This document shows, in pieces, positions 3,119-43,600 of a stretch of 64,000 nucleotides of DNA (the stretch's first letter is position 1; each line of letters starts with the position of its first letter). Both the position numbers and the translations under genes were made by a program. This stretch comes from Plectrocnemia conspersa. Taxonomy: Eukaryota; Arthropoda; Insecta; Trichoptera; Polycentropodidae. The stretch is taken from NCBI GenBank assembly GCA_009617715.1, contig VTFK01000227.1, positions 1 to 64,000 of the forward strand. Reading direction: 5' to 3'. The notes beneath the pieces are model-generated. The model saw only the letters and a program-made list of their open reading frames with translations, did not search any database and was not told the DNA's origin.

Positions 3119-4466
3119 ATGGCTAGCGACCGAGAGGTACTGAGAGAAGTATGGGAGGGGCGTTTACCGGCGTGCTTTCAGCTTCATCCGGATGAAGTCG
3201 TAGGCTTACAACAACCGGATCCGTTCTACCTAATGATACCGCGCCTCTCTTATTTTCCAATCGTCACAGATAAGGTTTGCATTTTCAAGCGACGGATCGA
3301 TAACGCGAACCCCTCGCTTATTCCGAACGTTTGAATTATTTCAGGTTAAAAAACATTTTATGCGATATATATCTCAAGAAAAATCCGACAATGAAATGTG
3401 GTTAGAGTTTAACGGACAACCTCTAAAGTGGCACTATCCTATCGGTCTATTATATGATTTGTACGGATCCGGCGAATTGCAATTACCCTGGACGCTCACT
3501 GTGCACTTTGACAAATTTCCAGACGACGTCATAATCAGATGTCCGAACAAGTAATCACTATTTAGTTATATGTCGTAAATGAAAATAGGAAAAATATTTA
3601 TTATTTTTGTTTTAAAAATAGAGACATTGTCGAATCACATTTTATGTCGAGCATCAAAGAAGCCGACGTTTTGAAGCAACAGAGGTCAAGTTGTATCCAG
3701 TATGCAGAAAAAAGGACCATAATCAGCTGTGGTTAGGATTACAAAACGGTAATGGTAATAATATGACTATAATGTTAGGACGTGCGATGCATCATAGTGA
3801 ATCGATATTATTTTTATTAGATAAGTTCGATCAATTTTGGGCTGTGAATAGAAGATTGATGGAGGCTAATGGCGATCAAGAGCATTTTAAACACGTTCCG
3901 TCAGATTGTATTCGAAGAAGGAAACGGCGGAGCTGGACCGGTGTTACAGAGGCTCGTAAAACCGGTCACTACTACGGGAAGTCGGGCGACGCTAGCCGAT
4001 ATGCTGGCTGAAATATTTCCTGAAAAAACTGAAGGTCAAAAAAATATTTTTTATTCGTAATTAATTTTCCGTATAAGTATAATTGGTACTTAATTAGTGA
4101 TATTTGGGGTAAAAGTCTAATATGAAAATGTCTGAATGGATTTTCAGCTGTTTATTTTTAAAAGTAAATTAAATTAATTGATATTTATTTTTGTAAAAGT
4201 GAACTTTCTCAGTATCAAAAACTTTATTTTAAAAATATGATAAAAACAGTCTACTTTGATTTTCAAATTACATAAAAAAAAGTTTTGAATTTAAATCAAT
4301 TATGACTTTATAAAATGTTTATAATAGATTTAAAGTGAGATATTTTGTATGAATTCCAGTCCGCATCAGAACTCACGGAGTGACGGTTCCGTCGGATACG
4401 CCTCTTCAGTGGATGTCGGAGCACCTGAGCTATCCTGATAACTTTTTACACTTGTGCGTGTGTTGA
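3119..4466 (+). CDS. Atg5: Autophagy protein Atg5
   Basis: Atg5 is conjugated to Atg12 and, with Atg16, forms the E3-like complex that lipidates Atg8/LC3 on the growing phagophore. Five exons are supported by GT-AG sites: 3119-3274, 3345-3550, 3622-3748, 3821-4034 and 4360-4466. Family landmarks in order are DREVLREVWEGRLPACF, FYLMIPRLSYFPIVTDK, PLKWHYPIGLLYDL, IKEADVLKQQ (the Lys near residue 133 aligns with the Atg12-acceptor Lys130 of human ATG5), KKDHNQLWLGLQN, KFDQFWAVNRRLM and LQWMSEHLSYPDNFLH. The start is fixed by alignment to animal Atg5 N-termini. The predicted protein is about 268 aa, close to the usual 270-275. Three frame breaks, each a net +1 base, occur at about 3684-3685 (GG), 3706-3713 (A run) and 3895-3915. 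With one base removed at each, the frame and exon phases close, so I read them as assembly indels. Intron 3 (3749-3820) is 72 bases and happens to be open. Confidence 0.95.
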
Positions 4467-4844
4467 GAGAGCGCGCGACGATCTCGGTAAATATACTTTC
4501 GGACAAAAATAAAACGAATCGATTTAAATATAAAACATGTTTTATTCTTTTAAATTAGTCTTGACGCATTTTATATAATATACGTATATAATATAATAAT
4601 ATAATATAATAATGATATAAATTTTCGTATAAAAATAAGCGACCGCCGATCGTATGTGTATAACTGAGGTCGCTCGGCGGTCGCAATATGACGAGCTGCC
4701 TCTCATAGTCTCTATATAATAGCGCAATAGCGGATATGTACGCGAGTAAACTGTTGGCACACGGTGATATGAAGGCACGTGAAGATACCTTAATGTTTCT
4801 TTTTAACAAACGCGGATCCCCGGACTAGACCGGCGTCGCCCGTC
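4467..4844. terminator. Shared Atg5/brk 3' region
   Basis: Only 378 bases separate the stop codons of the convergent Atg5 (+) and brinker (-) genes. AATAAA occurs on the plus strand at 4508-4513 and on the minus strand at 4541-4546. A perfect 16-base palindrome, ATAAAACATGTTTTAT, lies at 4530-4545 and overlaps the minus signal. The rest is AT-rich, with an ATA-rich repeat at about 4572-4620. This probably holds the polyadenylation sites of both genes. Cleavage sites cannot be placed from sequence alone. Confidence 0.6.
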
Positions 4845-5402
4845 TCAGCTGACGGGGGGTCCGAAGCGACGGTAGTCGTCCAGGGAGGACGAAGGCGACG
4901 CGGGCGACAGGGGCGCTACCGACGCAACTAGAGGTATGTATTCGAAGTTGTCTTCCGGCAGATAGGGGCGGAAGAGGCGCAGGACTCTGGGGGCCGCGGG
5001 CGGGGGCGGAGGAGGCGGCGGCGCTTCGGGCTCGTAGCCGCATTTTCTTCTTAAGGATAGATCCCAGGCCGCCGGGTGCTGCGCTTCCGGGGAGGTGGGT
5101 CGTCTCAGCGACAGGTCTACGGGGCGCGCCGGCGGCGAGGGCGCTCTGGGGCACGTCTGCTGTCGCACGGCTGCGCCCCTCAGCGCCGATTCGGCCTGGA
5201 GCCACTTTTGTATTTGTCTCCGGTGGATGCCGTACTTCCTGGCCGTGGCTCGCTGGTTGCCGCGGCAATCCGAGTCGTGTCTGTACGAATCGAGCACTTG
5301 CAGTTTGAACTGCGGGGCGAAGATGCGCCTGGAGCCGAGTTTCGCGTCGTGCCGGCACCCTACGGTTCTCTTGGTGGCGGGGGCGCCGAATCCGTTCGCC
5401 AT
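4845..5402 (-). CDS. brk: Brinker-type transcriptional repressor
   Basis: Single-exon gene of 185 aa. Residues about 23-75 form the Brinker DNA-binding domain, a homeodomain-like helix-turn-helix that folds on DNA and binds GGCGYY-type sites. Diagnostic strings are RRIFAPQFKLQVLDSYR, GNQRATARKYGIH and RRQIQKWLQAES. Residues 94-99 (PVDLSL) match the CtBP co-repressor motif PxDLS. A second, weaker copy (WDLSLRR) lies at 113-119. FRPYLPED at 144-151 resembles the Groucho-binding FKPY motif of fly Brk. A proline run covers about 128-135. Fly Brk is about 700 aa, so this is a much shorter version that keeps DNA binding and both recruitment motifs. In flies Brk represses Dpp targets and is itself silenced by Dpp. 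The gene is far more GC-rich than the window, converges on Atg5, and has silencer-element matches upstream. The start at 5402 precedes the domain; no longer in-frame start was evaluated in detail. The long open frame on the opposite strand is a shadow. Confidence 0.93.
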   Translation of the reverse strand: MANGFGAPATKRTVGCRHDAKLGSRRIFAPQFKLQVLDSYRHDSDCRGNQRATARKYGIHRRQIQKWLQAESALRGAAVRQQTCPRAPSPPARPVDLSLRRPTSPEAQHPAAWDLSLRRKCGYEPEAPPPPPPPPAAPRVLRLFRPYLPEDNFEYIPLVASVAPLSPASPSSSLDDYRRFGPPVS

Positions 5403-5681
5403 ATCGCCGGCGATGATGCGCGTTCGGCCGCCGGCCCGCGACTGAAAAGAGGGAGTCGCGCGACCGACCGCGACTTCGAACCTTCTCCCCAGTTTTCCGG
5501 CCGGAAAAGTCGGCAGCGCGACCCGAAAGGCTTACGAGAGCTTCGGCGCGACTGCGGGAGTGTAAAAATTTGTTTAAAACGTCCGATTCGAACGTTTCGA
5601 AAATGTGTCGGGTCGCGCGTCCGCTCGGAGCGGCAACGACGGCCGCGCGGCAGACAGGAATTGTCGCCAGCCGCCGGCGGC

Positions 5682-5697
5682 CAGACGCGGCGCCGCC
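5682..5697 (-). promoter_or_regulatory. Mad/Medea/Schnurri silencer element match 1
   Basis: Read on the brinker sense strand this is GGCGGC-GCCGC-GTCTG, an exact fit to GRCGNC-N5-GTCTG. In Drosophila that element is bound by a Mad-Medea complex that recruits Schnurri to silence brk. It lies about 280 bases 5' of the brk ATG, in GC-rich DNA, either just upstream of or inside the 5' UTR depending on the true start site. Its function here is inferred. Confidence 0.6.
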
Positions 5698-5794
5698 CGC
5701 GCGCGTATGAGCCGAAGCGCCCGGACTCGCGCGCGCCGGCGAGGGCTCGTCGAGTCGCTATGCCGCGGCCTTTGACCCAAAATTCACATATTTT

Positions 5795-5802
5795 TATTTA
5801 TA
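5795..5802 (-). promoter_or_regulatory. Candidate brk TATA box
   Basis: TATAAATA on the minus strand, about 390 bases upstream of the brk start codon and at the edge where GC-rich DNA gives way to AT-rich DNA. A start site about 30 bases downstream would fall near 5765-5770 and give a 5' UTR of about 365 bases that contains silencer match 1. TATA-like strings are common in AT-rich DNA, so this is tentative. No strong initiator was seen. Confidence 0.3.
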
Positions 5803-5879
5803 ACCTCGACTTGCGTAAATTCGTACTTACGCGACTATTTTTTTTTGTCTTAGAAATAAGTCATACATAAACTTATAAG

Positions 5880-7170
5880 ATTTTGAAAATATCAAAGGAA
5901 GACACTAAAAATAAAAATTATGGCTTTTGTATAATTAAAGGACGTCTGGTCATTTAATATGCACTATACATTTAATACTTTGCACTATAAACGACCACAG
6001 ACTAAACAATTTTTGCTACCCCTCCCTAAAAAAAGGTGAAATGTCTTTCATGGACCGAATTTTTACATTTGTAGTGCAAAGTATTAATTTTATAATGCAA
6101 TTAATTCACACCCTAAAAAATATATATTTTTAAAATCAAACCACTTTTTATCACATCTAAAACCCAAGGGGTTCAACTCTTTGTATGCGGGAGACGCTTA
6201 TCGTTTAAAAGCGGGATACAAGGACGAAACTTTTTTCTACTGCGATGTTAGGGATTCGTTTATCTGCATTTATCTGTTGTAAATGTTTACTATTTAGAGC
6301 AGGAGTCTATTTTTTTAATTAAAGGATAGTCAAATAACGTACATCTGGTTATTTTCTTTACCTAATATGTACGACCTATCTCGATTTTAATTAAATATCA
6401 CTATATTCCTCCGTGAGATTAGACTAATCTAGAAAAAAAACTAAACTGCGACGATAGATCGGAATTATAGTTATATGATAATCACTAATTCCGATCATTC
6501 AGACACGATAGAAACTGAAAAACACAAAGATTCATATGAAATTCGAACCTAATAAAACTAAAAATATGGTATATATTTGTATGCAGAATAATTAAAATAA
6601 AATATATAATAATGATATATTCTTTATAATAAATCACAACATAGACCACGCTGTACAAATAGGAAGAAGTCTCTCAATTTTTCTTTAGTTCGGGATAAAT
6701 CGGCGTTCCTAATTGTATTTTTAAAAAATCTGGATATCTGGTCATCTTAAATAAAGTAAAATCGTTTTACTGTGAATAATATAAAGTAGGAGAAATTGTC
6801 ATAAATTGTATTATGGTAATTGGTATACCATCCATGAGTCCACTCATCAAACTATTTTTCTTACATTCTTAAATTTCTTCGATACCCATACTTTTATTCA
6901 AGCAATACTTACTAATTTTATATTCAGTAATCATCGGAAGTTATCGGATAGAAAAGTTTTTATTTTGCGCATTGAAACTTGAAAAATCCCTTGATAAATC
7001 CGCTGCCTGTTTTTAACGCTCCGCCTGATTTTCTACATATTGCTTTAACTGATTGACTTAATAGCACCATCCTTTATGTGACTCAATTGTTTTTCCATAT
7101 TTAAATGACATAATGTTCAAGTCATTTTCATTTGAATTATGTGGCTTATTAGTTTTAGTTTTATAAATTA
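5880..7170. other. AT-rich intergenic DNA upstream of brk
   Basis: No gene is seen. An imperfect inverted repeat of about 35 bases per arm spans roughly 5953-6106; both arms contain TAATACTTTGCACTA, and the layout is that of a small decayed MITE. The remainder has no motif I can name. Confidence 0.45.
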
Positions 7171-7173
7171 CTA

Positions 7174-7358
7174 GCTTAAGGGTGATCCAACTTCAGTTTC
7201 AGAACATTTTTTAACACCCAATCTGCAAAAATTCTTCGTTGCCCGTTGTCTCTGGACTTCAGTTCTTGTGTTATATGAAATTTATACGTGCGTAGGTCAA
7301 GATGTAAAATGCGCCATAAGAAAAGCAATATTTTCGGCTGAACGGGCGCCATGCTCAC
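7174..7358 (-). mobile_element. Mariner-like transposase fragment
   Basis: The minus-strand frame reads WRILHLDLRTYKFHITQELK and RRIFADWVLKN. This is the linker just before the catalytic core in the insect mariner-like family whose other relics lie at 13.8-14.8 kb and 35.8-36.1 kb. The frame ends in LKLDHP, encoded by the GGGTGATCCAACTTCAGTTTC block. The same block, again preceded by TA, recurs at 41646, so it may be an element end. This suggests an internally deleted copy whose catalytic half is missing. Confidence 0.65.
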
Positions 7359-7398
7359 GCACAGGCCTTACCCTATGTTCTAAAGTTTTTCACTACGT

Positions 7399-7437
7399 TG
7401 CGAATTGTTCGCTTAGTTACTAAGCGAACAATTCGCA
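7399..7437. repeat. Perfect 19-bp-arm palindrome
   Basis: The arm TGCGAATTGTTCGCTTAGT is followed, after one unpaired base at 7418, by its exact reverse complement, giving a 39-base perfect inverted repeat. It lies just right of the mariner-like fragment and could be an internal hairpin or a fused pair of termini of a transposon. Confidence 0.9.
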
Positions 7438-7439
7438 CT

Positions 7440-8390
7440 AAGCCTTAGTACGACGATAAAATTGACCATAATCTTCCCGTAAATTTTGATACATAGTTCG
7501 TACAGAATTTTTATTTCTGTAGATCTATTTTGTAAATGTTTTGTTGCAAAATAACATTTGAAACGTTCAACACGCGTGATTATTGACAGCTGTCTGATTT
7601 ACAGTGCTGCCAACATAGGAAACTCGAATTGGATATGCATAATATTAATATTACACACAAGCTTATTTTGTCTAGTCTAAATTAATCTTAAAGCAGGAGC
7701 GTAGTAAATTGTTGATAAATGCTTTTGTTCACACATTCAACTTTACTGCGAATTTGCCATCATTTGGGTATATGCTCAGAAAAAACTTAATTTGTATTTC
7801 AAAATAACAAAGTGCTATAATATAATATAGCCCTACGTATTTTTTTATAGTGCTATAAACATTACTTGCTTCTTGCTTCAATAACAAACATTAAAAATCT
7901 ACTATTTAGTCAGTTTTATTAGTAAGCCTGTGACATCATTTATTGAAGCTGCAACTTCATCATTTTCCTAAGGGAAAAGATAATCAACTGTTTAATTAGT
8001 TTAGATTGAATGCAGTAATAGACATTTTATGATGTTAACTGCACAAGAAAAGACAATATTAGTCCATCACACGTATGTTTTTTTCAGACAGGTCCGTGAA
8101 AAAAATGACTTACTTTGAAATATTTTTCGGTGGCAATAATGCAATAGTATGAATCGTGGTATAATACAATATTTAGAACTAAAAACTATTTTTACAGTTT
8201 AAACGATAATTTTATGGAAATATCAATTAACTCCCCCCTCTACCATCTTTCCCATCACTGGCAAATAAACACGTATGAACCTGCACTTGATTTGCTATGA
8301 GATCATATTATTTTAAATATTTATTTTTTGCGGTCTTATGCATATAGGTATGTATGTATGGGTAAAAAATTGTATATTGCTGCCTTTGCT
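7440..8390. other. Intergenic DNA
   Basis: AT-rich sequence with no gene, RNA or clear repeat recognised between the palindrome and the GC-rich island. Confidence 0.45.
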
Positions 8391-8446
8391 TTTCGCATAC
8401 ACTGAGACCGCCCGCGAAGCTCGCTCTCTCTCTACTCGAGAATCGG

Positions 8447-8462
8447 CAGACACCCAGGCGCC
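8447..8462 (-). promoter_or_regulatory. Mad/Medea/Schnurri silencer element match 2
   Basis: The brk sense strand reads GGCGCC-TGGGT-GTCTG, an exact match to GRCGNC-N5-GTCTG with the palindromic Mad site GGCGCC. It is about 3.05 kb upstream of the brk ATG and 65 bases from match 3, in the same orientation. Confidence 0.62.
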
Positions 8463-8526
8463 GTCTCGCCGCGCCGAGTAAACAACTCAGCCGCGGCACA
8501 GCGTCCCGAACGCGCACCTGTTGCGA

Positions 8527-8542
8527 CAGACGCGGCGGCGCC
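8527..8542 (-). promoter_or_regulatory. Mad/Medea/Schnurri silencer element match 3
   Basis: The brk sense strand reads GGCGCC-GCCGC-GTCTG, again an exact consensus match with the strong Mad half GGCGCC and the five-base spacer needed for the Mad-Med-Shn complex in flies. It is about 3.13 kb upstream of the brk ATG. Confidence 0.62.
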
Positions 8543-8910
8543 GACAAAATGGCCGCTCGCGGACACCCTCGGACGCGGAACGTCGCAAGCGCCGCATCTC
8601 TTTTAGTTTATTGTACAAAAGCTGGTGAAAAAAAAACACCATTGTGTGCATCGGGGGAATTCTCGAAAGCCGAGACTGACCGTCGCCGAGATCTACCTGC
8701 GCGCCTTCGCAGAACTCCCCGAAGGTGCGAACCGCGCCGGAAACGTGTATAGAAAATCTGCATTCTTCTGCGGGTCGCGTTACTTTCGGAGCGGCGAAGG
8801 TCCGGCGCCTTTTATGCGCCTCTCATTATACAGGCCCTAATTCGCAACGCGGAACCTCGAGGAGGTCTCGCCGAGGCGAGGGTCGATCCTTGCTGAATTG
8901 CGCATAACTT

Positions 8911-9267
8911 AGCCGACAGAAAGAAAAATATACCGATTTACAGAACTATTGCATTTACCGATTCGTATTATAAACTATGCCAACATGACCTATAATAAGC
9001 TGACCATACGTCCTCCGCATTTTTTTTCTTTTCCTTTGCCCTTCTCGAATAAAAAAATACGTGATGCTATTTTTTTAGCTCCTCGCTGTAATCAGTCCTT
9101 GAACAAAAATTTTCGAGATGACCTTTGGACAAAAATTTTTAATTTCTGAAATGATATTTTTTAGCTCCCGCAGCAATTTATCCTCCTCGAATAAAAAAAT
9201 CAATGTGCTATTTTTATTTTTAGTCTCCTTTGTATTTTCAAAATCTTAGCACCTTACCTATAAGCAT
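8911..9267. repeat. Imperfect tandem duplication
   Basis: Two related blocks of about 130-140 bases, near 9037-9130 and 9175-9240, share CTCGAATAAAAAAAT followed by GTGCTATTTTT and TAGCTCC-like strings. No gene is seen. Confidence 0.4.
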
Positions 9268-9653
9268 CTATACTTCGTTTCATTTAACAGTCACTTTGAA
9301 GTCTATCCATTTCGACATTATTCATGTGAAAAAGAGATGAAAACACGTTTGATATATCATACTTATCATTACTCCTTTCTATATTTTAAACAAATTTAGA
9401 GACATTAGAAATTTTACTTTTATTTTTTATGTTGAAATAGTGAAAGTTATAAGTAATTAAAATCAATAATTTATCAATCGTTATCATTTAAATATATATC
9501 GATAACAATTTGAAGACGTACGTGCGCTGCGAGTGTCGGAATAACAATTCAAACGAAATGACAACTTTGCTCAGTGCAAGCGGACCGATGAAATGCCGTT
9601 GTAAAATACGCGATAATCCTCAAAGTGACTCTGTTAAATGAAACGAAGTATAG
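9268..9653. mobile_element. MITE with about 33-bp terminal inverted repeats
   Basis: The left end reads CTATACTTCGTTTCATTTAA and continues CAGTCACTTTGA. The right end (9619-9653), reverse-complemented, reads the same apart from a two-base insertion before TCACTTTGA. The element is about 386 bases and non-coding. The ends carry TATA, fitting a TA-targeting Tc1/mariner-type element, though the exact target duplication is ambiguous. A diverged relative, sharing ACTTATCATTA-type internal blocks in inverted order, lies at about 26510-26760. Confidence 0.75.
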
Positions 9654-11380
9654 GTCCTAAACTGTCAAACTGTCTCCGAAGATTGATCTTTGCGTTGAGA
9701 CATTTTGAATTGCATATAACTTAGCCAACCTAATCTTTTTTGTCTTATCTCTACCTTATTATATGTTAGTTGGTAATACTTTTAGTAGTCATGAATTTGA
9801 TTTTGTTAATTGAATATATTTGTTAGTTTTAACATATTTACACGTTTAAGTCTACGTTTACTTATAATTTTATCAGTTTACTTGCCAGCATGTTTGAGTA
9901 CGATTTTAATATGTTAAAATATTGTTCACTTATCTATTTAATTGTTTCTTTTACACTGACACAGAGGGACGCCATTTCATATTTTTTCCGTGGGTAAGGG
10001 GGGGGGGTAAAAGTTGCCCACTCAGTGATCGTTATTTTAATATTTCTTAATAAACTCGAGTAGGTCTCTCTGATGGCTTTTAGGAGCAATACATTGAGCA
10101 TAATACAATCTGTTAAGTTCACAAACTCTTTGTCTTTGAAGGTAAGTTTTTGCGTTGAAGTAATTAACAACATATAAATATTAGTTATAATGATTTACAG
10201 AAATTTTGCATATGCTGACCTTAAAGTATGCACATACAATATTTAGGGTGTCTTTGAAGGTTTGTCCTTGAATTGTTAAGCTATAAAATGCGCATAACGT
10301 ACAGAATCTGGGTTCCGGAAAAAAAACCACCCGCATTTCACCGACAGCAATTAAGCGCTAGCAGTTTACCGCCGCGTCAATTGATCGCATAAACAATTTA
10401 TGACATACAAATGCTTGCTATTGCCAGGCAATACATATAATTTTGGGCATTTAAAATTGAAAATAAGGTTTTTCTTATGGAGATTTAATTTTTAGAATTA
10501 AATGTAAACTCGCGGTGTGCCAAGTCTAAAAAAAGTTAAAATCAATGCGTATTTTAAGAGGCTTAACTTATATACTGTTCTAAAATGTCTATGAAACTAA
10601 ATTTGTGCAAAACGTCCATTTGCTGTTCAAGCCCAAACCTAACCTAAACGAATTAATCTATTTTAACTTCAAAAAGTAAAATTAGTTATATAACTTTCAT
10701 TGTGTTATGTTTTGGTTTTAACAGCATGGACGTATCGCAACTGTTACAGTGAATTAATATTTTTAATAGTATGCATATAATTTTATTAACTTAAGTTAAA
10801 ATTAATCAAATATCAGTGCAACTGCATTTATTCACTGCTACGCTTCATCATATGCTACGCAAAACTACTTCCAGGAACCAGATAAGGAGTGACTCATCGG
10901 TAGAAATTTTGATCAGTTTTGATTCCGAGAATCTTTTTTCTTCCGCCAGGGTTAACGGATTCGAGCAACCGTCGGGCGGTCACAGTTTCAGTCATCGCTG
11001 AAGAAGGGCATAAGAGCGCACTACAGAAAGGGCCTTGCCCTTGGCCGGTCGAGCCTCCACAGCAGACTTGGCGCCCCCAGAGACTGCAACCTCTAGAGCT
11101 GCATCCACTATAATTGGAGAGCGTGTCCTCAGTGTCTGTATTAACAATTGCTTTCTCGCTTTCTATGTATTATATCTAACATAACTTAGCCAAATAAAGT
11201 TTTTTTAAATGGCTGAATTGCGTTTCTTTCGACATCCACAAAAATAATAAAAATGTATCATTTATAAGTATGTTTGAAACAGGTCTGTTAAAAACCTGAT
11301 AAATAAAATATAATTTGATACTATATTTCTTATATTATAAAATCTGCTGACTATAAAAAAATTACTTTTATAGTAAAAAA
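9654..11380. other. Intergenic DNA with diffuse repeats
   Basis: No gene is seen. A block around 10608-10660 (CGTCCATTTGCTGTTCAA, CCCAAACCTAA) recurs at 19748-19780 next to a hairpin, so it belongs to a dispersed repeat. A run of nine or more Gs lies at about 9998-10007. The moderately GC-rich patch at 10900-11110 has only short unrecognised frames. Confidence 0.4.
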
Positions 11381-11383
11381 AAT

Positions 11384-12710
11384 TACAGAATCTGTAGGCA
11401 CTGACAGGACCTTTAATTTCTGTTTCGATAATATACAAATGTAATCGTTTTAAAACACATAGTTTTATTATGAAAATAAAACTTATACCATAGTGAAAGA
11501 AATAAAAAATGTCTCCGAAAATTTTATGGAACAGATCTGAAGATAAATTAAATATAGCATTTTTTCAGAATCCGTTATACTCGGAAGTATTAATCTACCT
11601 TGACATTTGCGAATAAGCCTTTAGAATTGAACATTCATAATTCAAACTCATCTCATGCAGTGAGACGTGATCAATTGCACATAATTACGTGTATTGTTAC
11701 AGAATTAATTGTACATGCTATCCAAATGGCACCTGTACGTCTGTCGATACTCGAAGCGTCATCGCTTACGTTTTGAACTTTGAATCACCTATTGTCTAAC
11801 GTGTTTTAGTTTCAAATGAAAAATATGACAATTTCTCTTGACGAAGAAATATTATTTATAGAGTTTTTGCAAATTGCTTTATTAAATTGCAGAATCGCTA
11901 GTTGTCTAGTGATAAGATTCGCTAATCACTGCTGTTTTGAACTTTGAACCAAAATCACAGTCGACGTATGTGAGAAAATTTGTTTATATATTTAAGAACT
12001 CATAAAAAAAATACATGACAACAATTCTACAGATTTACAAAATTTCTGTGCTTAAAAATATAAGACGCCTGACTGTCTACCGACCACAGAAGAGTAGATC
12101 TCGCTTGCGATTGATATTATAAACGGAATTCAAAACCCAGTTAAGATCGATTTTATTTCTTACAGAATATCTGCATATTGCTTCTAGCTCTAGAGTAAGT
12201 ATTGTGTAAGAAAAATTATTTTAATTCCTCTTTTCAATTATTTTTCGATATGAAAATTTATATAAGTTCTGCATCAGAATATAAAAAGCACCTGCCTGTC
12301 TACAGATCTAATTAGCGCTAATCTCGCTTGCGATTATTGCGTCAATATTATTTCATTGTGATCATTATAGATTGCGCATAATTAGATATGATGGTTTCTT
12401 ATAGAACTTATACATAGAAATGACATAAACACAAAAAAAACACGACTGTTGCCAAAAAACAGTTTTACATGTCTAAGTAGTGTCTAGTGAAAAGAAACAT
12501 AATAATACTTCTCAAAATCTCTTCAGTGGTTTATTTTCGATATTGCTCATGATTATATATGATGATTTCTTACAGAATCTGGTAGATATAACTATAAAAT
12601 TTACAGAATTTATACAACAAATGTAAGGCGTCAGTCTGTCTACCGGTTGCGTTTAACATTCGTCTCGCTTGTGATTGTTGCGTTTTGAACTTTGAATTCA
12701 AAACAGTTAC
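11384..12710. repeat. Degenerate tandem array, units about 160-230 bp
   Basis: A recurring pattern runs: TTACAGAATCTG, a short spacer, then GGCGCCTG-CTGTCTAC-like, then TCTCGCTTGCGATT, then TTTTGAACTTTGAA. Units or unit parts start near 11729, 11891, 12059, 12287, 12441 and 12600. Identity between units is moderate with indels. No open frame crosses the units. This looks like an old satellite-type or internally repeated element; its nature is not recognised. Confidence 0.55.
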
Positions 12711-13780
12711 AATATATTATACGCCATGGTAGCTCTAAACAGGTTGATTCATTAGTCAGAGAACTGCTGTATAAAAGTCGAGGAAAAAATCATGTAAAAA
12801 ACGTTGCAATTTTTCTAGTAGACGCTTCTCTTCATCGTGAATTAAAACAATTTCACTAGAACGTTGTAATCGTTTAAAACCTGTATATATCCAAATTTAC
12901 TTTAAAACATTAGATACAAAACTATAAGACGCTATAAAATATCGTACTCCAGAAATATCTTTCGGCCTTCTTACTCATAGGTGTACTAAGCAATAACGTT
13001 ATCGCGCGATAACAGTATGACGTACCGAACGAAGTTATTTCAATACACCTGAGGTGCGAAAATGAAAAAAAATCTTTCAAGAAACTCCTTTGAGTCTACG
13101 GTTTTACTTACCTGAATGACGCATTTACCTTACTAAACGAGCTTAATCTCTCCTTTCAAGGGCCGCCAGGCAGTTCGCTCGTTATGAATGGCGAAATAAA
13201 ACCTTTTATAATAAGATAACTGTTGATGTACATGCGATAAGTGAATATGACGCCAAAGAATTATTCTTCTCACAGATTTTCGTTCCACGAACAGATCAGC
13301 CATAATCTCATAATGATTTTTTTTGAAATGTGCTAAGATCTTCCTAAGCCTATGGAATGTGTAATATTATATATTTTCGTACCCCAATTTTATTCCTGTT
13401 GGAAACAATGGTCTTCTTTTATTTTTTGCGCTGGCACCCTCTTTTTCGCATTCCACTCCTCGACATCCGTTTGGCTGTTCTTAATTTTTTTTCTCGTCGA
13501 ACTATGAAGACGCGCTGTCTAGAGATACCCGATGAATATTTGCTCCGATTCCAGGTAAATTTTTACAAAATCAATAGTCAATAATTGTTTTTATAAGACG
13601 TTTAATCACCTCACGATATAAATACAGAAAAGGGAATGGAGCATGAAGCATGAAGTTAATTCAACTCCATATTTATATGTGCATATATAATCAAAGGTGT
13701 TAAAACAAACGGTTATTTGCTATAAATATGATAGCCAGAAAAGATTTTATTAGAAGCATTATATATTATAATTTTGATAT
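12711..13780. other. Intergenic DNA with a GC palindrome
   Basis: No recognised gene. A perfect 16-base palindrome GTTATCGCGCGATAAC lies at 12998-13013, nested between short inverted AGGTGTA/TACACCT arms (about 12979-13050). The open frame at 13357-13584 has no recognisable motif. Confidence 0.4.
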
Positions 13781-13781
13781 A

Positions 13782-14790
13782 AATGTGTTTTCTTAGAGGT
13801 ATAGAACTTTAAAATAAAATAAAACACATAAAAATCGTGGTAATAGCCATGTATCAGTTTTATTAGAAAGATAATTTTGAGCATATGGTTGGTTCGAATA
13901 AAGCGCTATCTGGAAGTCCAATTTTCGAGCACTAGGGCCGTATATCGGAAATAACGCGGCGAATGTTGGCTTCTTAATCGTTCATCGTTTATCAGAAAAT
14001 AATCCGAAGGTGAGGTGTTAAATCACACGATCTTGGAGGGCAATTCACATGCGAAATTATGCGCTCATCGAATGTTTTCTTCAATAAATTAAGTGTGGCG
14101 CGCGCTGTGTGGTATGTTGCGCCATTTTGTTGAAACTAACACTCTTCCACATTAATGCCATTCAATTAAGGAATGAAAAAGTCAGTAATAATGGATCTAT
14201 AGCGCTCTACATTGACTGTAACGTTCTGGCCTGCATCATTTTTGAATAAATATGGACCAATGATTCCACCAGCCCATAAAGAAAATAAAACAGTGACTTT
14301 TTATGGATGAAATGGCGTCTCAATAATGGCTTGTGGATTTTTTTCACTCCAAATGCGGTAATTTTGCTCGTTAAAATAACCATTCATGACCTTCATCGCT
14401 GAACAAAATTTTGTAGTGAAAATTAGGATCAAGAGCAATCTCGTTTCCCACACCTCCAAATCAGAAACAACTTCTTCGGTGCGCACTGTACGACGTCTCT
14501 GCGGATGCGTGTTATCAATTAAAGTATACGTGGTGCGAAAACGATCCATGGTTATTCGAATCACTTGCTCTGATGGACGTCTATGTCGACTGTAAAATAG
14601 ACGTAGCGCACGATAAGTTTTGCAAACTGAACCACGATTTTCGAAATAAATTTGCATAGTTTCAAGAGTTGTTCTGTCGTAGGTTTATTTATATTGAAAT
14701 GGCAAATCAAACTGAGCACAAATCAGCTGTCAGCTGTCAAATTGGCTGTCGCTGGAAAAAGTGTTGCACAAACCTTTAGATATAAATGCA
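13782..14790 (-). mobile_element. Mariner-like DNA transposon relic (copy 1)
   Basis: The minus strand encodes, with breaks, a transposase of the insect mariner-like type. The N-terminal frame (14301-14657) reads QIYFENRGSVCKTYRALRLF and RIWSEKNPQAIIETPFHP. Further left, the frame resumes with GGIIGPYLFKND and a region like TARATLNLLKKTFDERIISH and CPPRSCDLTP before its end. Several stops and frame changes make it inactive. The 3' end (AAATGTGTTTT, TTAGAGGTAT) is shared with copy 2 at 36.1 kb in the opposite orientation, which sets the left border near 13782. The right border is estimated. Confidence 0.8.
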
Positions 14791-41800: not shown

Positions 41801-43600
41801 ATTATGTTAAATAAAAAATGTTGTCTAAAAATAACTACGCAGCGATCATCGGCCAAATGTGCGAGTGAAATAAATTTATATTTAGATATATAGCAACGTG
41901 GGTTTTTATTATTATTTTGCTAGTTTAGCATGCTGAATGTAAACGATAAATGGTATTTTTTAAAAGTATAATATATCAATCAAAATAACGCCGCAGCTGC
42001 TGTAGATAATCAGCAGACGACTTCGGATAGAAACACAGGTGCAGACGTAAGATTTATATTCGGTTGATTGTATCGGTTTCAATAAGTGACGTTCCGTTTA
42101 GAATTTGAAACGAAGACGTGGTTTATGACGGGTGCACGATAAAAATCAAGTACTGGAAAATGATGGAGATATTCATATTTCTTTATGAAGCAACATTCGT
42201 TCTTTAGCTTTATATATGTGAGAAAATATTATCCCTTTTAAGAACATAAGATTATGTATTTTGTATGTACATGATCTCTAATTAATAATATTAATAGTAT
42301 TTTGTATGTACATGATATCTAATTAACAGTAACAAATAAGGTTTTTATGTGTGTATCTACATAGATTAATTTAGTTAAGCTCTCTATAATACAATGTCAG
42401 TTAAAAATAACTACTGCATTTTAATAAAGTTTAGTTTAAGTCTTGAAAAAATGTATAGATTTGTTTTGCAGTATCTTGTACAAAGTATTGTGCCAACGAA
42501 TACAGACAATCCATAAAATCTAAATAAGGATTTACTCTGACTTTTCTAAGCAATTGCTGTGATACTTCTATAAAGTTGGTCGGGGCCAGTTAATAATCAC
42601 ATCGCTCCTATTGTGAATAGTGAAAACACCTTGTTTGTAAGTAGCAAGGTTTCAAGAATTACAAATAATGATAAATATCCAAATGCGTTATAGGGAATAA
42701 TAATTATTACTATCCTTATTTATATAATAAAGTATGTTCGGTTAGAAATATAATCTTGCAATGATAATTCGGTGAATGTGAAGGTCGACTAATTAATCAT
42801 GTCATTTGCTATTTTAAGAGATTATATCATTATGTCATCAAATATTTAATAACAGTAACTCAGTATATGTTTATTATATTTTATATATTAAAATAATATT
42901 ATTAATTATGTTATGACTAGATTAAACATATAATAAGTATATGAAATTGCATAATGTTGTGCAGCATAAATAAACCATGTATATCCAATTGATAATCCAT
43001 GATATCCAATTTTTTTTTCACCAGTTTTTGTAACATTGCTATTATATAATATTTAATATATTTTTTTAATACATACAATGAATAAGCGTACTTGTTTATA
43101 TGTCAGTACTGGCGTCAGTGAGTCATGTTTTATACCAACACGATTATCAGAAGTTCAAAAACATTTTATATATTAAATCTTATACAACGGAAAGGTAAAA
43201 AACATTGATTTATAAGAGGCTATAAATTAAATAATATTTTTTTAAATAAGTGGTCAGTAACATTTAATCTAAACGGTCAGTAATATTATTGATATATTGT
43301 CAGTCAAAAATGGTGAACGGTCAGTAGCTTTCTCATGTACGATGAGTAACTTTTGTTTAACGGTCATTTAACCGATTGCGGCTTAGCAACAAATGCCTAT
43401 CTTAGCAACAAATTGTTATTACAATGTTTTATGACATGTGTTCATATGCCCTGGCCTGCGTGTCAGTGCGTTAATTTTCATATAAGGCAAAGTTACTTAG
43501 TTATAAATTATAATTATTGTGCAACATTTTTTTTAATGCACGTACAGTTTAAAAATAATTGTACATACATATGTATACGTCAAGTCCAGCATCTAAAGAA
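41801..43600. other. Intergenic DNA
   Basis: AT-rich. A 30-base string beginning GTATTTTGTATGTACATGAT is tandemly duplicated at about 42258 and 42298. No gene is recognised. Confidence 0.4.

What the first reader, a model, noticed from the sequence alone, without database searches (positions are those of the whole stretch)
5682..8542. Three exact Dpp silencer elements upstream of brinker
GRCGNC-N5-GTCTG is the Drosophila element through which Mad/Medea plus Schnurri silence brk. Exact matches occur at 5682-5697, 8447-8462 and 8527-8542, all upstream of this brk and all in brk-sense orientation. On scanning GTCTG and CAGAC strings by eye I found no other exact match in the window. With equal base frequencies about 0.24 matches are expected by chance over both strands of 64 kb, so three clustered next to brk is notable. 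GC richness of the local DNA raises that chance figure for these spots, but a rough recalculation at 66% GC still gives far below one. This would place the Dpp-to-brk switch and its cis-code in an insect with a very short Brk protein.
Basis: partly seen in the sequence, partly recalled or inferred. Interest (0 to 1): 0.88.

Follow-up and report, generated by a model that had tools for sequence, protein, structure and literature searches.

The report
BMP silencer cluster upstream of brinker
Next to the insect gene brinker lies a tight cluster of the short DNA signs through which BMP (Dpp) signalling switches that gene off in flies; it is clustered beyond what the chance controls gave, but it is a new example of a known kind of switch rather than a new kind.

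Summary
Exactly three GRCGNC-N5-GTCTG matches lie in the window, all upstream of a real brk ORF and in brk sense. Block shuffles expect 0.02-0.05; none of 300 per block size gave three. GC islands from 20 other loci of the genome predict about 0.02 in the two upstream islands. The genome holds 434 matches; among the 105 of GGCGSC type the next closest pair is 90 kb apart, against three within 2.9 kb here.

Linker 5 is special: with the published 15-bp form GRCGNC-N5-GTCT it has six sites; 40 other linkers average 0.475. Two more, near 12 kb, lie in a degenerate repeat and count little. The genome encodes a Schnurri-like protein with a C-terminal finger triplet.

Most likely these are working BMP silencers of brk. 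Binding, silencing and conservation could not be tested. Silencer elements at brk of other insects are already in print, so this is a new member of a known kind.

The parts
4845..5402 (-). brinker coding ORF, 185 aa, no intron within the ORF, BrkDBD at residues 23-77
5682..5697 (-). SE1, GGCGGCGCCGCGTCTG, exact 16-bp silencer consensus, 295 bp upstream of the brk ATG measured at its far end
8447..8462 (-). SE2, GGCGCCTGGGTGTCTG, exact consensus, about 3.06 kb upstream
8527..8542 (-). SE3, GGCGCCGCCGCGTCTG, exact consensus; same 5-base spacer as SE1; GCCATTTT just 5' of it and CAGGTG just 3' of it
8672..8687 (-).
8351..8900 (.). distal GC/CpG island (57% GC, CpG o/e 1.49) that carries SE2-SE4; inferred distal regulatory module
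4701..5850 (.). GC/CpG island over the brk ORF and proximal upstream DNA with SE1 (62% GC, CpG o/e 1.46)
12064..12078 (+). 15-bp consensus match GACGCCTGACTGTCT inside a degenerate local repeat; doubtful
12627..12641 (+). 15-bp consensus match GGCGTCAGTCTGTCT inside another copy of the same repeat; doubtful

Best explanation
SE1-SE4 are BMP silencer elements of brk. When Dpp/BMP signals, two phospho-Mad would bind each GRCGNC half and Medea the GTCT half; the fixed 5-base linker and the T at position 15 would pose the complex so that Schnurri's C-terminal fingers dock and silence brk. Where signal is absent, activators acting through the two GC islands would drive brk. Shown here: the gene, the sites, the linker specificity, the clustering, and a Schnurri-like gene with a C-terminal finger triplet in the same genome. 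Inferred: binding, silencing, which activators act, that the triplet corresponds to fly fingers 6-8, and that the distal 8.35-8.9 kb island is an enhancer or distal promoter of brk.
For: Exact consensus matches next to a true brk. Linker specificity: six sites at linker 5 against 19 over 40 other linkers (0.475 each, maximum 2); with 11700-12720 masked, four against 17 over 40 (0.425 each), Poisson P 0.001. Block shuffles of 5403-12700 never reach 4 in 2000 at three block sizes. Genomic GC islands predict 0.019 in the two upstream island parts. The brk trio is the only cluster among all 105 GGCGSC matches of the genome; among 171 of 434 places seen, no pair outside brk is closer than 4.7 kb. 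Schnurri-like finger pairs and a C-terminal triplet lie in order on contig C954; in flies ZF6-8 dock on the Mad-Med-SE complex (passage of PMC10853822).
Against: No binding, expression or conservation data. Both site clusters lie in GC-rich islands, where SE-like strings are likelier, and wrong linkers also score there (8 hits over 40 linkers in 5403-9000, 0.2 each). One of the four sites lacks the final G of the stricter consensus. With the looser form GNCGNC-N5-GNCTN linker 5 is not enriched over the whole window. Genome-wide the motif is only 1.7 times as common as its reversed control (434 against 251), so most single matches mean little. Mad and Medea genes were not looked for. The places of 263 of the 434 matches were not seen. 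The GC-island control is small (5.1 kb from 20 loci on two contigs).
Confidence: 0.82

Rival explanations
1. The matches are by-products of GC-rich, CpG-rich promoter islands and mean nothing.
For: SE1-SE4 all lie in the two most GC-rich islands of the window; some GRCGNC-Nk-GTCT hits with wrong linkers lie in the same islands.
Against: Linker 5 stands out; shuffles within 150-bp blocks keep local GC and dinucleotides and give 0.05; islands in 20 other loci of the genome give 3 hits over 31 linkers in 5.1 kb, none at linker 5; all four share brk sense.
Confidence: 0.1
2. The GGCGCC halves are Brk autoregulatory sites (GGCGYY) and the SE match is secondary.
For: Brk recognises GGCGYY (PMC3738585 passage); palindromic GGCGCC occurs at 5689, 7345, 8457, 8537 and 8804, three of these within SE1-SE3.
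Against: Autoregulation does not explain GTCT at exactly 5 bases in four places, one of which (SE4, GGCGAC) is not a GGCGYY site; two of the five GGCGCC sites (7345, 8804) have no SE.
Confidence: 0.05
3. They are Smad activation elements, so brk or another gene is switched on by BMP.
For: Mad and Medea half-sites are shared between silencer and activation elements (PMC7669266 passages).
Against: No GGCGCCA-N4-GNCV match in the window; the sites have the 5-base linker and T15 that Schnurri is said to need.
Confidence: 0.03

Closest known systems
Drosophila melanogaster brk silencer elements (Pyrowolakis et al. 2004 and Gao et al. 2005 not read, seen only as cited; PMC3738585: abstract, passages and section 6 seen)
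   Same: Same gene, same motif, exact 5-base linker, several copies in the brk locus.
   Different: Fly brk has 13 predicted elements under a looser consensus; here 4 well-supported ones. Fly Brk is far longer (about 700 aa, recalled) than 185 aa.
Silencer element plus Downstream Element upstream of insect brinker genes (Rebeiz et al. 2012, Dev Biol 362:282; not held, nothing read, content recalled; PMC3738585 cites it for other insects having fewer SEs at brk)
   Same: Silencer elements at brk outside Drosophila melanogaster.
BMP activation element GGCGCCA-N4-GNCV (consensus in passages of PMC7669266 and PMC4161316)
   Same: Mad/Medea half-site logic.
   Different: No match in the window.

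Membership tests
BMP silencer element (BMP-SE) | Mad half GRCGNC | tested here: met
   All four sites
BMP silencer element (BMP-SE) | Exactly 5 bases between halves | tested here: met
   All four sites; linker 5 enriched over 40 other linkers
BMP silencer element (BMP-SE) | Medea half GTCT with T at position 15 | tested here: met
   All four sites; consensus in passages of PMC7669266 and PMC12633792
BMP silencer element (BMP-SE) | G at position 16 (stricter 16-bp form) | tested here: inconclusive
   Met by SE1-SE3, not by SE4 (C); PMC3738585 reports complex formation also on looser GNCGNC-N5-GNCTN sites
BMP silencer element (BMP-SE) | Lies by a gene repressed by BMP | tested here: inconclusive
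   The gene is brk by sequence; that BMP represses it in this insect was not tested
BMP silencer element (BMP-SE) | Schnurri with C-terminal finger triplet in the genome | tested here: met
   C954, loci L030, L031, L033.
BMP silencer element (BMP-SE) | Mad and Medea genes in the genome | not tested
   The genome search answered 4 times only
BMP silencer element (BMP-SE) | Binds phospho-Mad/Medea/Schnurri and silences a reporter | not testable with these tools
   Needs EMSA and reporter
BMP silencer element (BMP-SE) | Conserved in close relatives | not testable with these tools
   No DNA of relatives reached (the tool states that G000 has no relatives here)
BMP activation element | GGCGCCA-N4-GNCV | tested here: not met
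   0 matches in window
Insect brk SE + Downstream Element architecture (Rebeiz 2012) | Downstream Element next to the SE | not testable with these tools
   Paper not held, motif sequence unknown to me

The most novel reading that the evidence does not exclude
The locus is a pared-down, double-reading brk switch: a distal island with three head-to-tail silencer elements in 241 bp and one promoter-proximal element do the work of the fly's 13, and because three of the four carry a palindromic GGCGCC that fits the Brk site, Brk autorepression and Smad-Schnurri silencing compete for the same DNA, in a lineage whose Brk protein has shrunk and lost the second HTH domain that some relatives keep.
Probability: 0.2. 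Interest if true: 0.5.

Novelty: new member of a known kind. Interest (0 to 1): 0.38.

Why it matters
It extends the Dpp-to-brk cis-code to another insect, probably a beetle, with few, countable sites. PMC3738585 itself suggests that insects with fewer elements could be simpler models of silencer architecture (passage). It also gives a clean case in which motif grammar (the exact linker) stands above background in raw sequence.

Tried and rejected
Chance in GC-rich DNA: tested with block shuffles, linker controls and genomic GC islands; rejected as the main cause. Six sites upstream of brk: I first counted 12064 and 12627 with the rest, then found them in copies of a degenerate local repeat at about 11.7-12.7 kb; down-weighted. 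The bound 12700 was chosen after seeing the sites, so its P of 5e-7 should not be used; the whole-window figures are the fairer ones. The looser form GNCGNC-N5-GNCTN has 8 matches in the window but linkers 0 and 1 have 9 and 8, so that form shows no enrichment over the whole window; in 5400-9000 it has 4 at linker 5 and up to 3 at others. Duplication of one island into the other: no BLAST match between them at E 1e-3. Activation element: none. Dorsal GGGWWWYCM and Su(H) matches: none in 5400-9100 (motifs recalled); a looser Dorsal-like pattern gave two, not followed. Rfam at gathering scores and the tRNA scan found nothing in the window. Homologous DNA: no brk relative confirmed in the viral and prokaryote collections. 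The closest other SE pair seen in the genome (C113, 4.7 kb apart, L009) was read for ORFs only; no gene was identified.

Full report
What is there. The window is contig C215:1-64000 of a 392.9-Mb, 959-contig genome. A 185-aa ORF at 4845-5402 on the minus strand carries the Brinker DNA-binding domain (Pfam BrkDBD, E 5.2e-28; fly Brinker structure 2glo, E 2e-25). The closest protein in the database is 187 aa, 96-97% identical with the same start and end, so the short Brk is unlikely to be an assembly artefact. Motifs PxDLS, WDLS and [KR]LF[KR]PYL shared with Tribolium castaneum and Cylas formicarius Brk suggest a beetle; that is inference. The gene ATG5 lies tail to tail with brk (3119-4466, plus); I recall it as a neighbour of brk in flies too.

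The sites. Exactly three GRCGNC-N5-GTCTG matches exist in the window, at 5682-5697, 8447-8462 and 8527-8542, all minus, all upstream of brk. The consensus in its 15-bp form, GRCGNC-N5-GTCT (PMC12633792 passage; PMC7669266 gives GNCT), adds 8673-8687 on the same strand and 12064-12078 and 12627-12641 on the other. The last two sit in copies of a degenerate repeat (three copies spaced 223 and 340 bases; the third lacks the site), so they are not independent and count little. This leaves four sites: one about 0.3 kb upstream of the ATG and three within 241 bp about 3.1-3.3 kb upstream, in a CpG-rich island.

Is it chance? Five tests. (1) Dinucleotide shuffles of the whole window give 0.02. (2) Shuffles within blocks of 2000 to 150 bp give at most 0.05, and 0 of 300 reach three at each block size. 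(3) Twenty other 10-kb stretches of the genome (19 from C113, 1 from C26) contain 5.1 kb of comparable GC islands with three hits over 31 linkers and none at linker 5, predicting 0.019 for the two upstream island parts; this sample is small. (4) Keeping the real sequence and varying only the linker, linker 5 has six sites of the 15-bp form against 19 over 40 other linkers (mean 0.475, maximum 2); with the repeat masked, four against 17 over 40 (mean 0.425), Poisson P about 0.001. This is the hardest test, because it keeps the local enrichment of both half-sites. With the looser form GNCGNC-N5-GNCTN linker 5 does not stand out over the whole window (8 matches; linkers 0 and 1 have 9 and 8). (5) Genome-wide there are 434 exact 16-bp matches (reversed-pattern control 251). 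All 50 GGCGCC-type and all 55 GGCGGC-type matches were listed: the brk trio is the only cluster, the next closest pair being 90 kb apart. Of the 171 distinct places seen among the 434, no pair outside brk is closer than 4.7 kb; the other 263 places were not seen.

The machinery. Read in order they show a finger pair followed by a C2HC-like finger (L031), a second pair in two exons (L030), and a triplet near the end of the open frame (L033; zinc-finger families). This is the layout of fly Schnurri as I recall it. In flies ZF6-8 dock on the Mad-Med-SE complex and are lacking in vertebrate Schnurri proteins (PMC10853822: start of abstract, passages). So a protein of the kind that reads silencer elements is encoded here. 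Mad and Medea were not looked for.

How it likely works. Signal: phospho-Mad and Medea bind the two halves, the 5-base linker and T15 impose the conformation that Schnurri recognises (PMC7669266 passage), and brk is silenced. No signal: brk is on and represses BMP targets. The motif, spacing, clustering and a Schnurri-like gene are shown; binding, silencing and the role of the distal island as enhancer or promoter are inferred. GGCGCC in SE1-SE3 also fits the Brk site GGCGYY (PMC3738585 passage), so autorepression through the same DNA is possible.

Known or new. In D. [quoted passage not shown]). The same paper states that other insect species contain significantly fewer such elements in the brk locus, citing Rebeiz et al. 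2012. That paper is not held; I recall that it reports a silencer element with a Downstream Element conserved upstream of insect brinker genes. The finding is therefore a new member of a known kind: a sound, useful prediction, not a surprise. In the listings of nine searches (capped lists, one of 1,559 papers showing 20) and the passages that I opened I noticed no other report of silencer elements at brk of a non-fly insect; PMC4217690 (passages) compares fly and mosquito brk enhancers by Dorsal, Snail and Zelda motifs instead.

Noticed in passing
window 3119-4466: ATG5 gene, plus strand, tail to tail with brk (378 bases between the ends); its frame breaks twice by apparent 1-base shifts (about 3690 and 3900, my reading), which may be assembly indels or decay.
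   Followed up: partly
window 4845-5402 and P0003-P0006, P0008, P0009: Tribolium, Cylas, Cimex, Blattella and other Brk proteins carry a second BrkDBD-like HTH; in this insect it is gone apart from a possible SSSLDDYRR remnant, and some relatives (P0004, P0011, P0013) show a shortened one.
   Followed up: partly
window 8515-8553: SE3 is flanked 5' by GCCATTTT (Pho/YY1-like, motif recalled; GCCATNTT occurs 14 times in the window) and 3' by CAGGTG (17 times); they might be part of a brk module or chance.
   Followed up: no
window 11700-12720: Degenerate repeat with units about 220-340 bases apart, two of whose copies carry a 15-bp silencer consensus, so local repeats could seed new silencer elements.
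   Followed up: partly
window 14304-14684: ORF with DUF4817 helix-turn-helix (E 2e-8), a transposon-type domain (nature recalled). One search also lists a TPR_12 match (E 2e-5) in an ORF that I did not locate.
   Followed up: no
window 8614-8636 and 43010-43032: A 23-base, 96% identical stretch shared in opposite orientation between the distal island and a place 34 kb away; may be chance.
   Followed up: no
L009 (C113:936001-945000): The closest other pair of exact silencer matches among the places seen in the genome, 4.7 kb apart; a candidate second BMP-silenced gene, not identified.
   Followed up: partly
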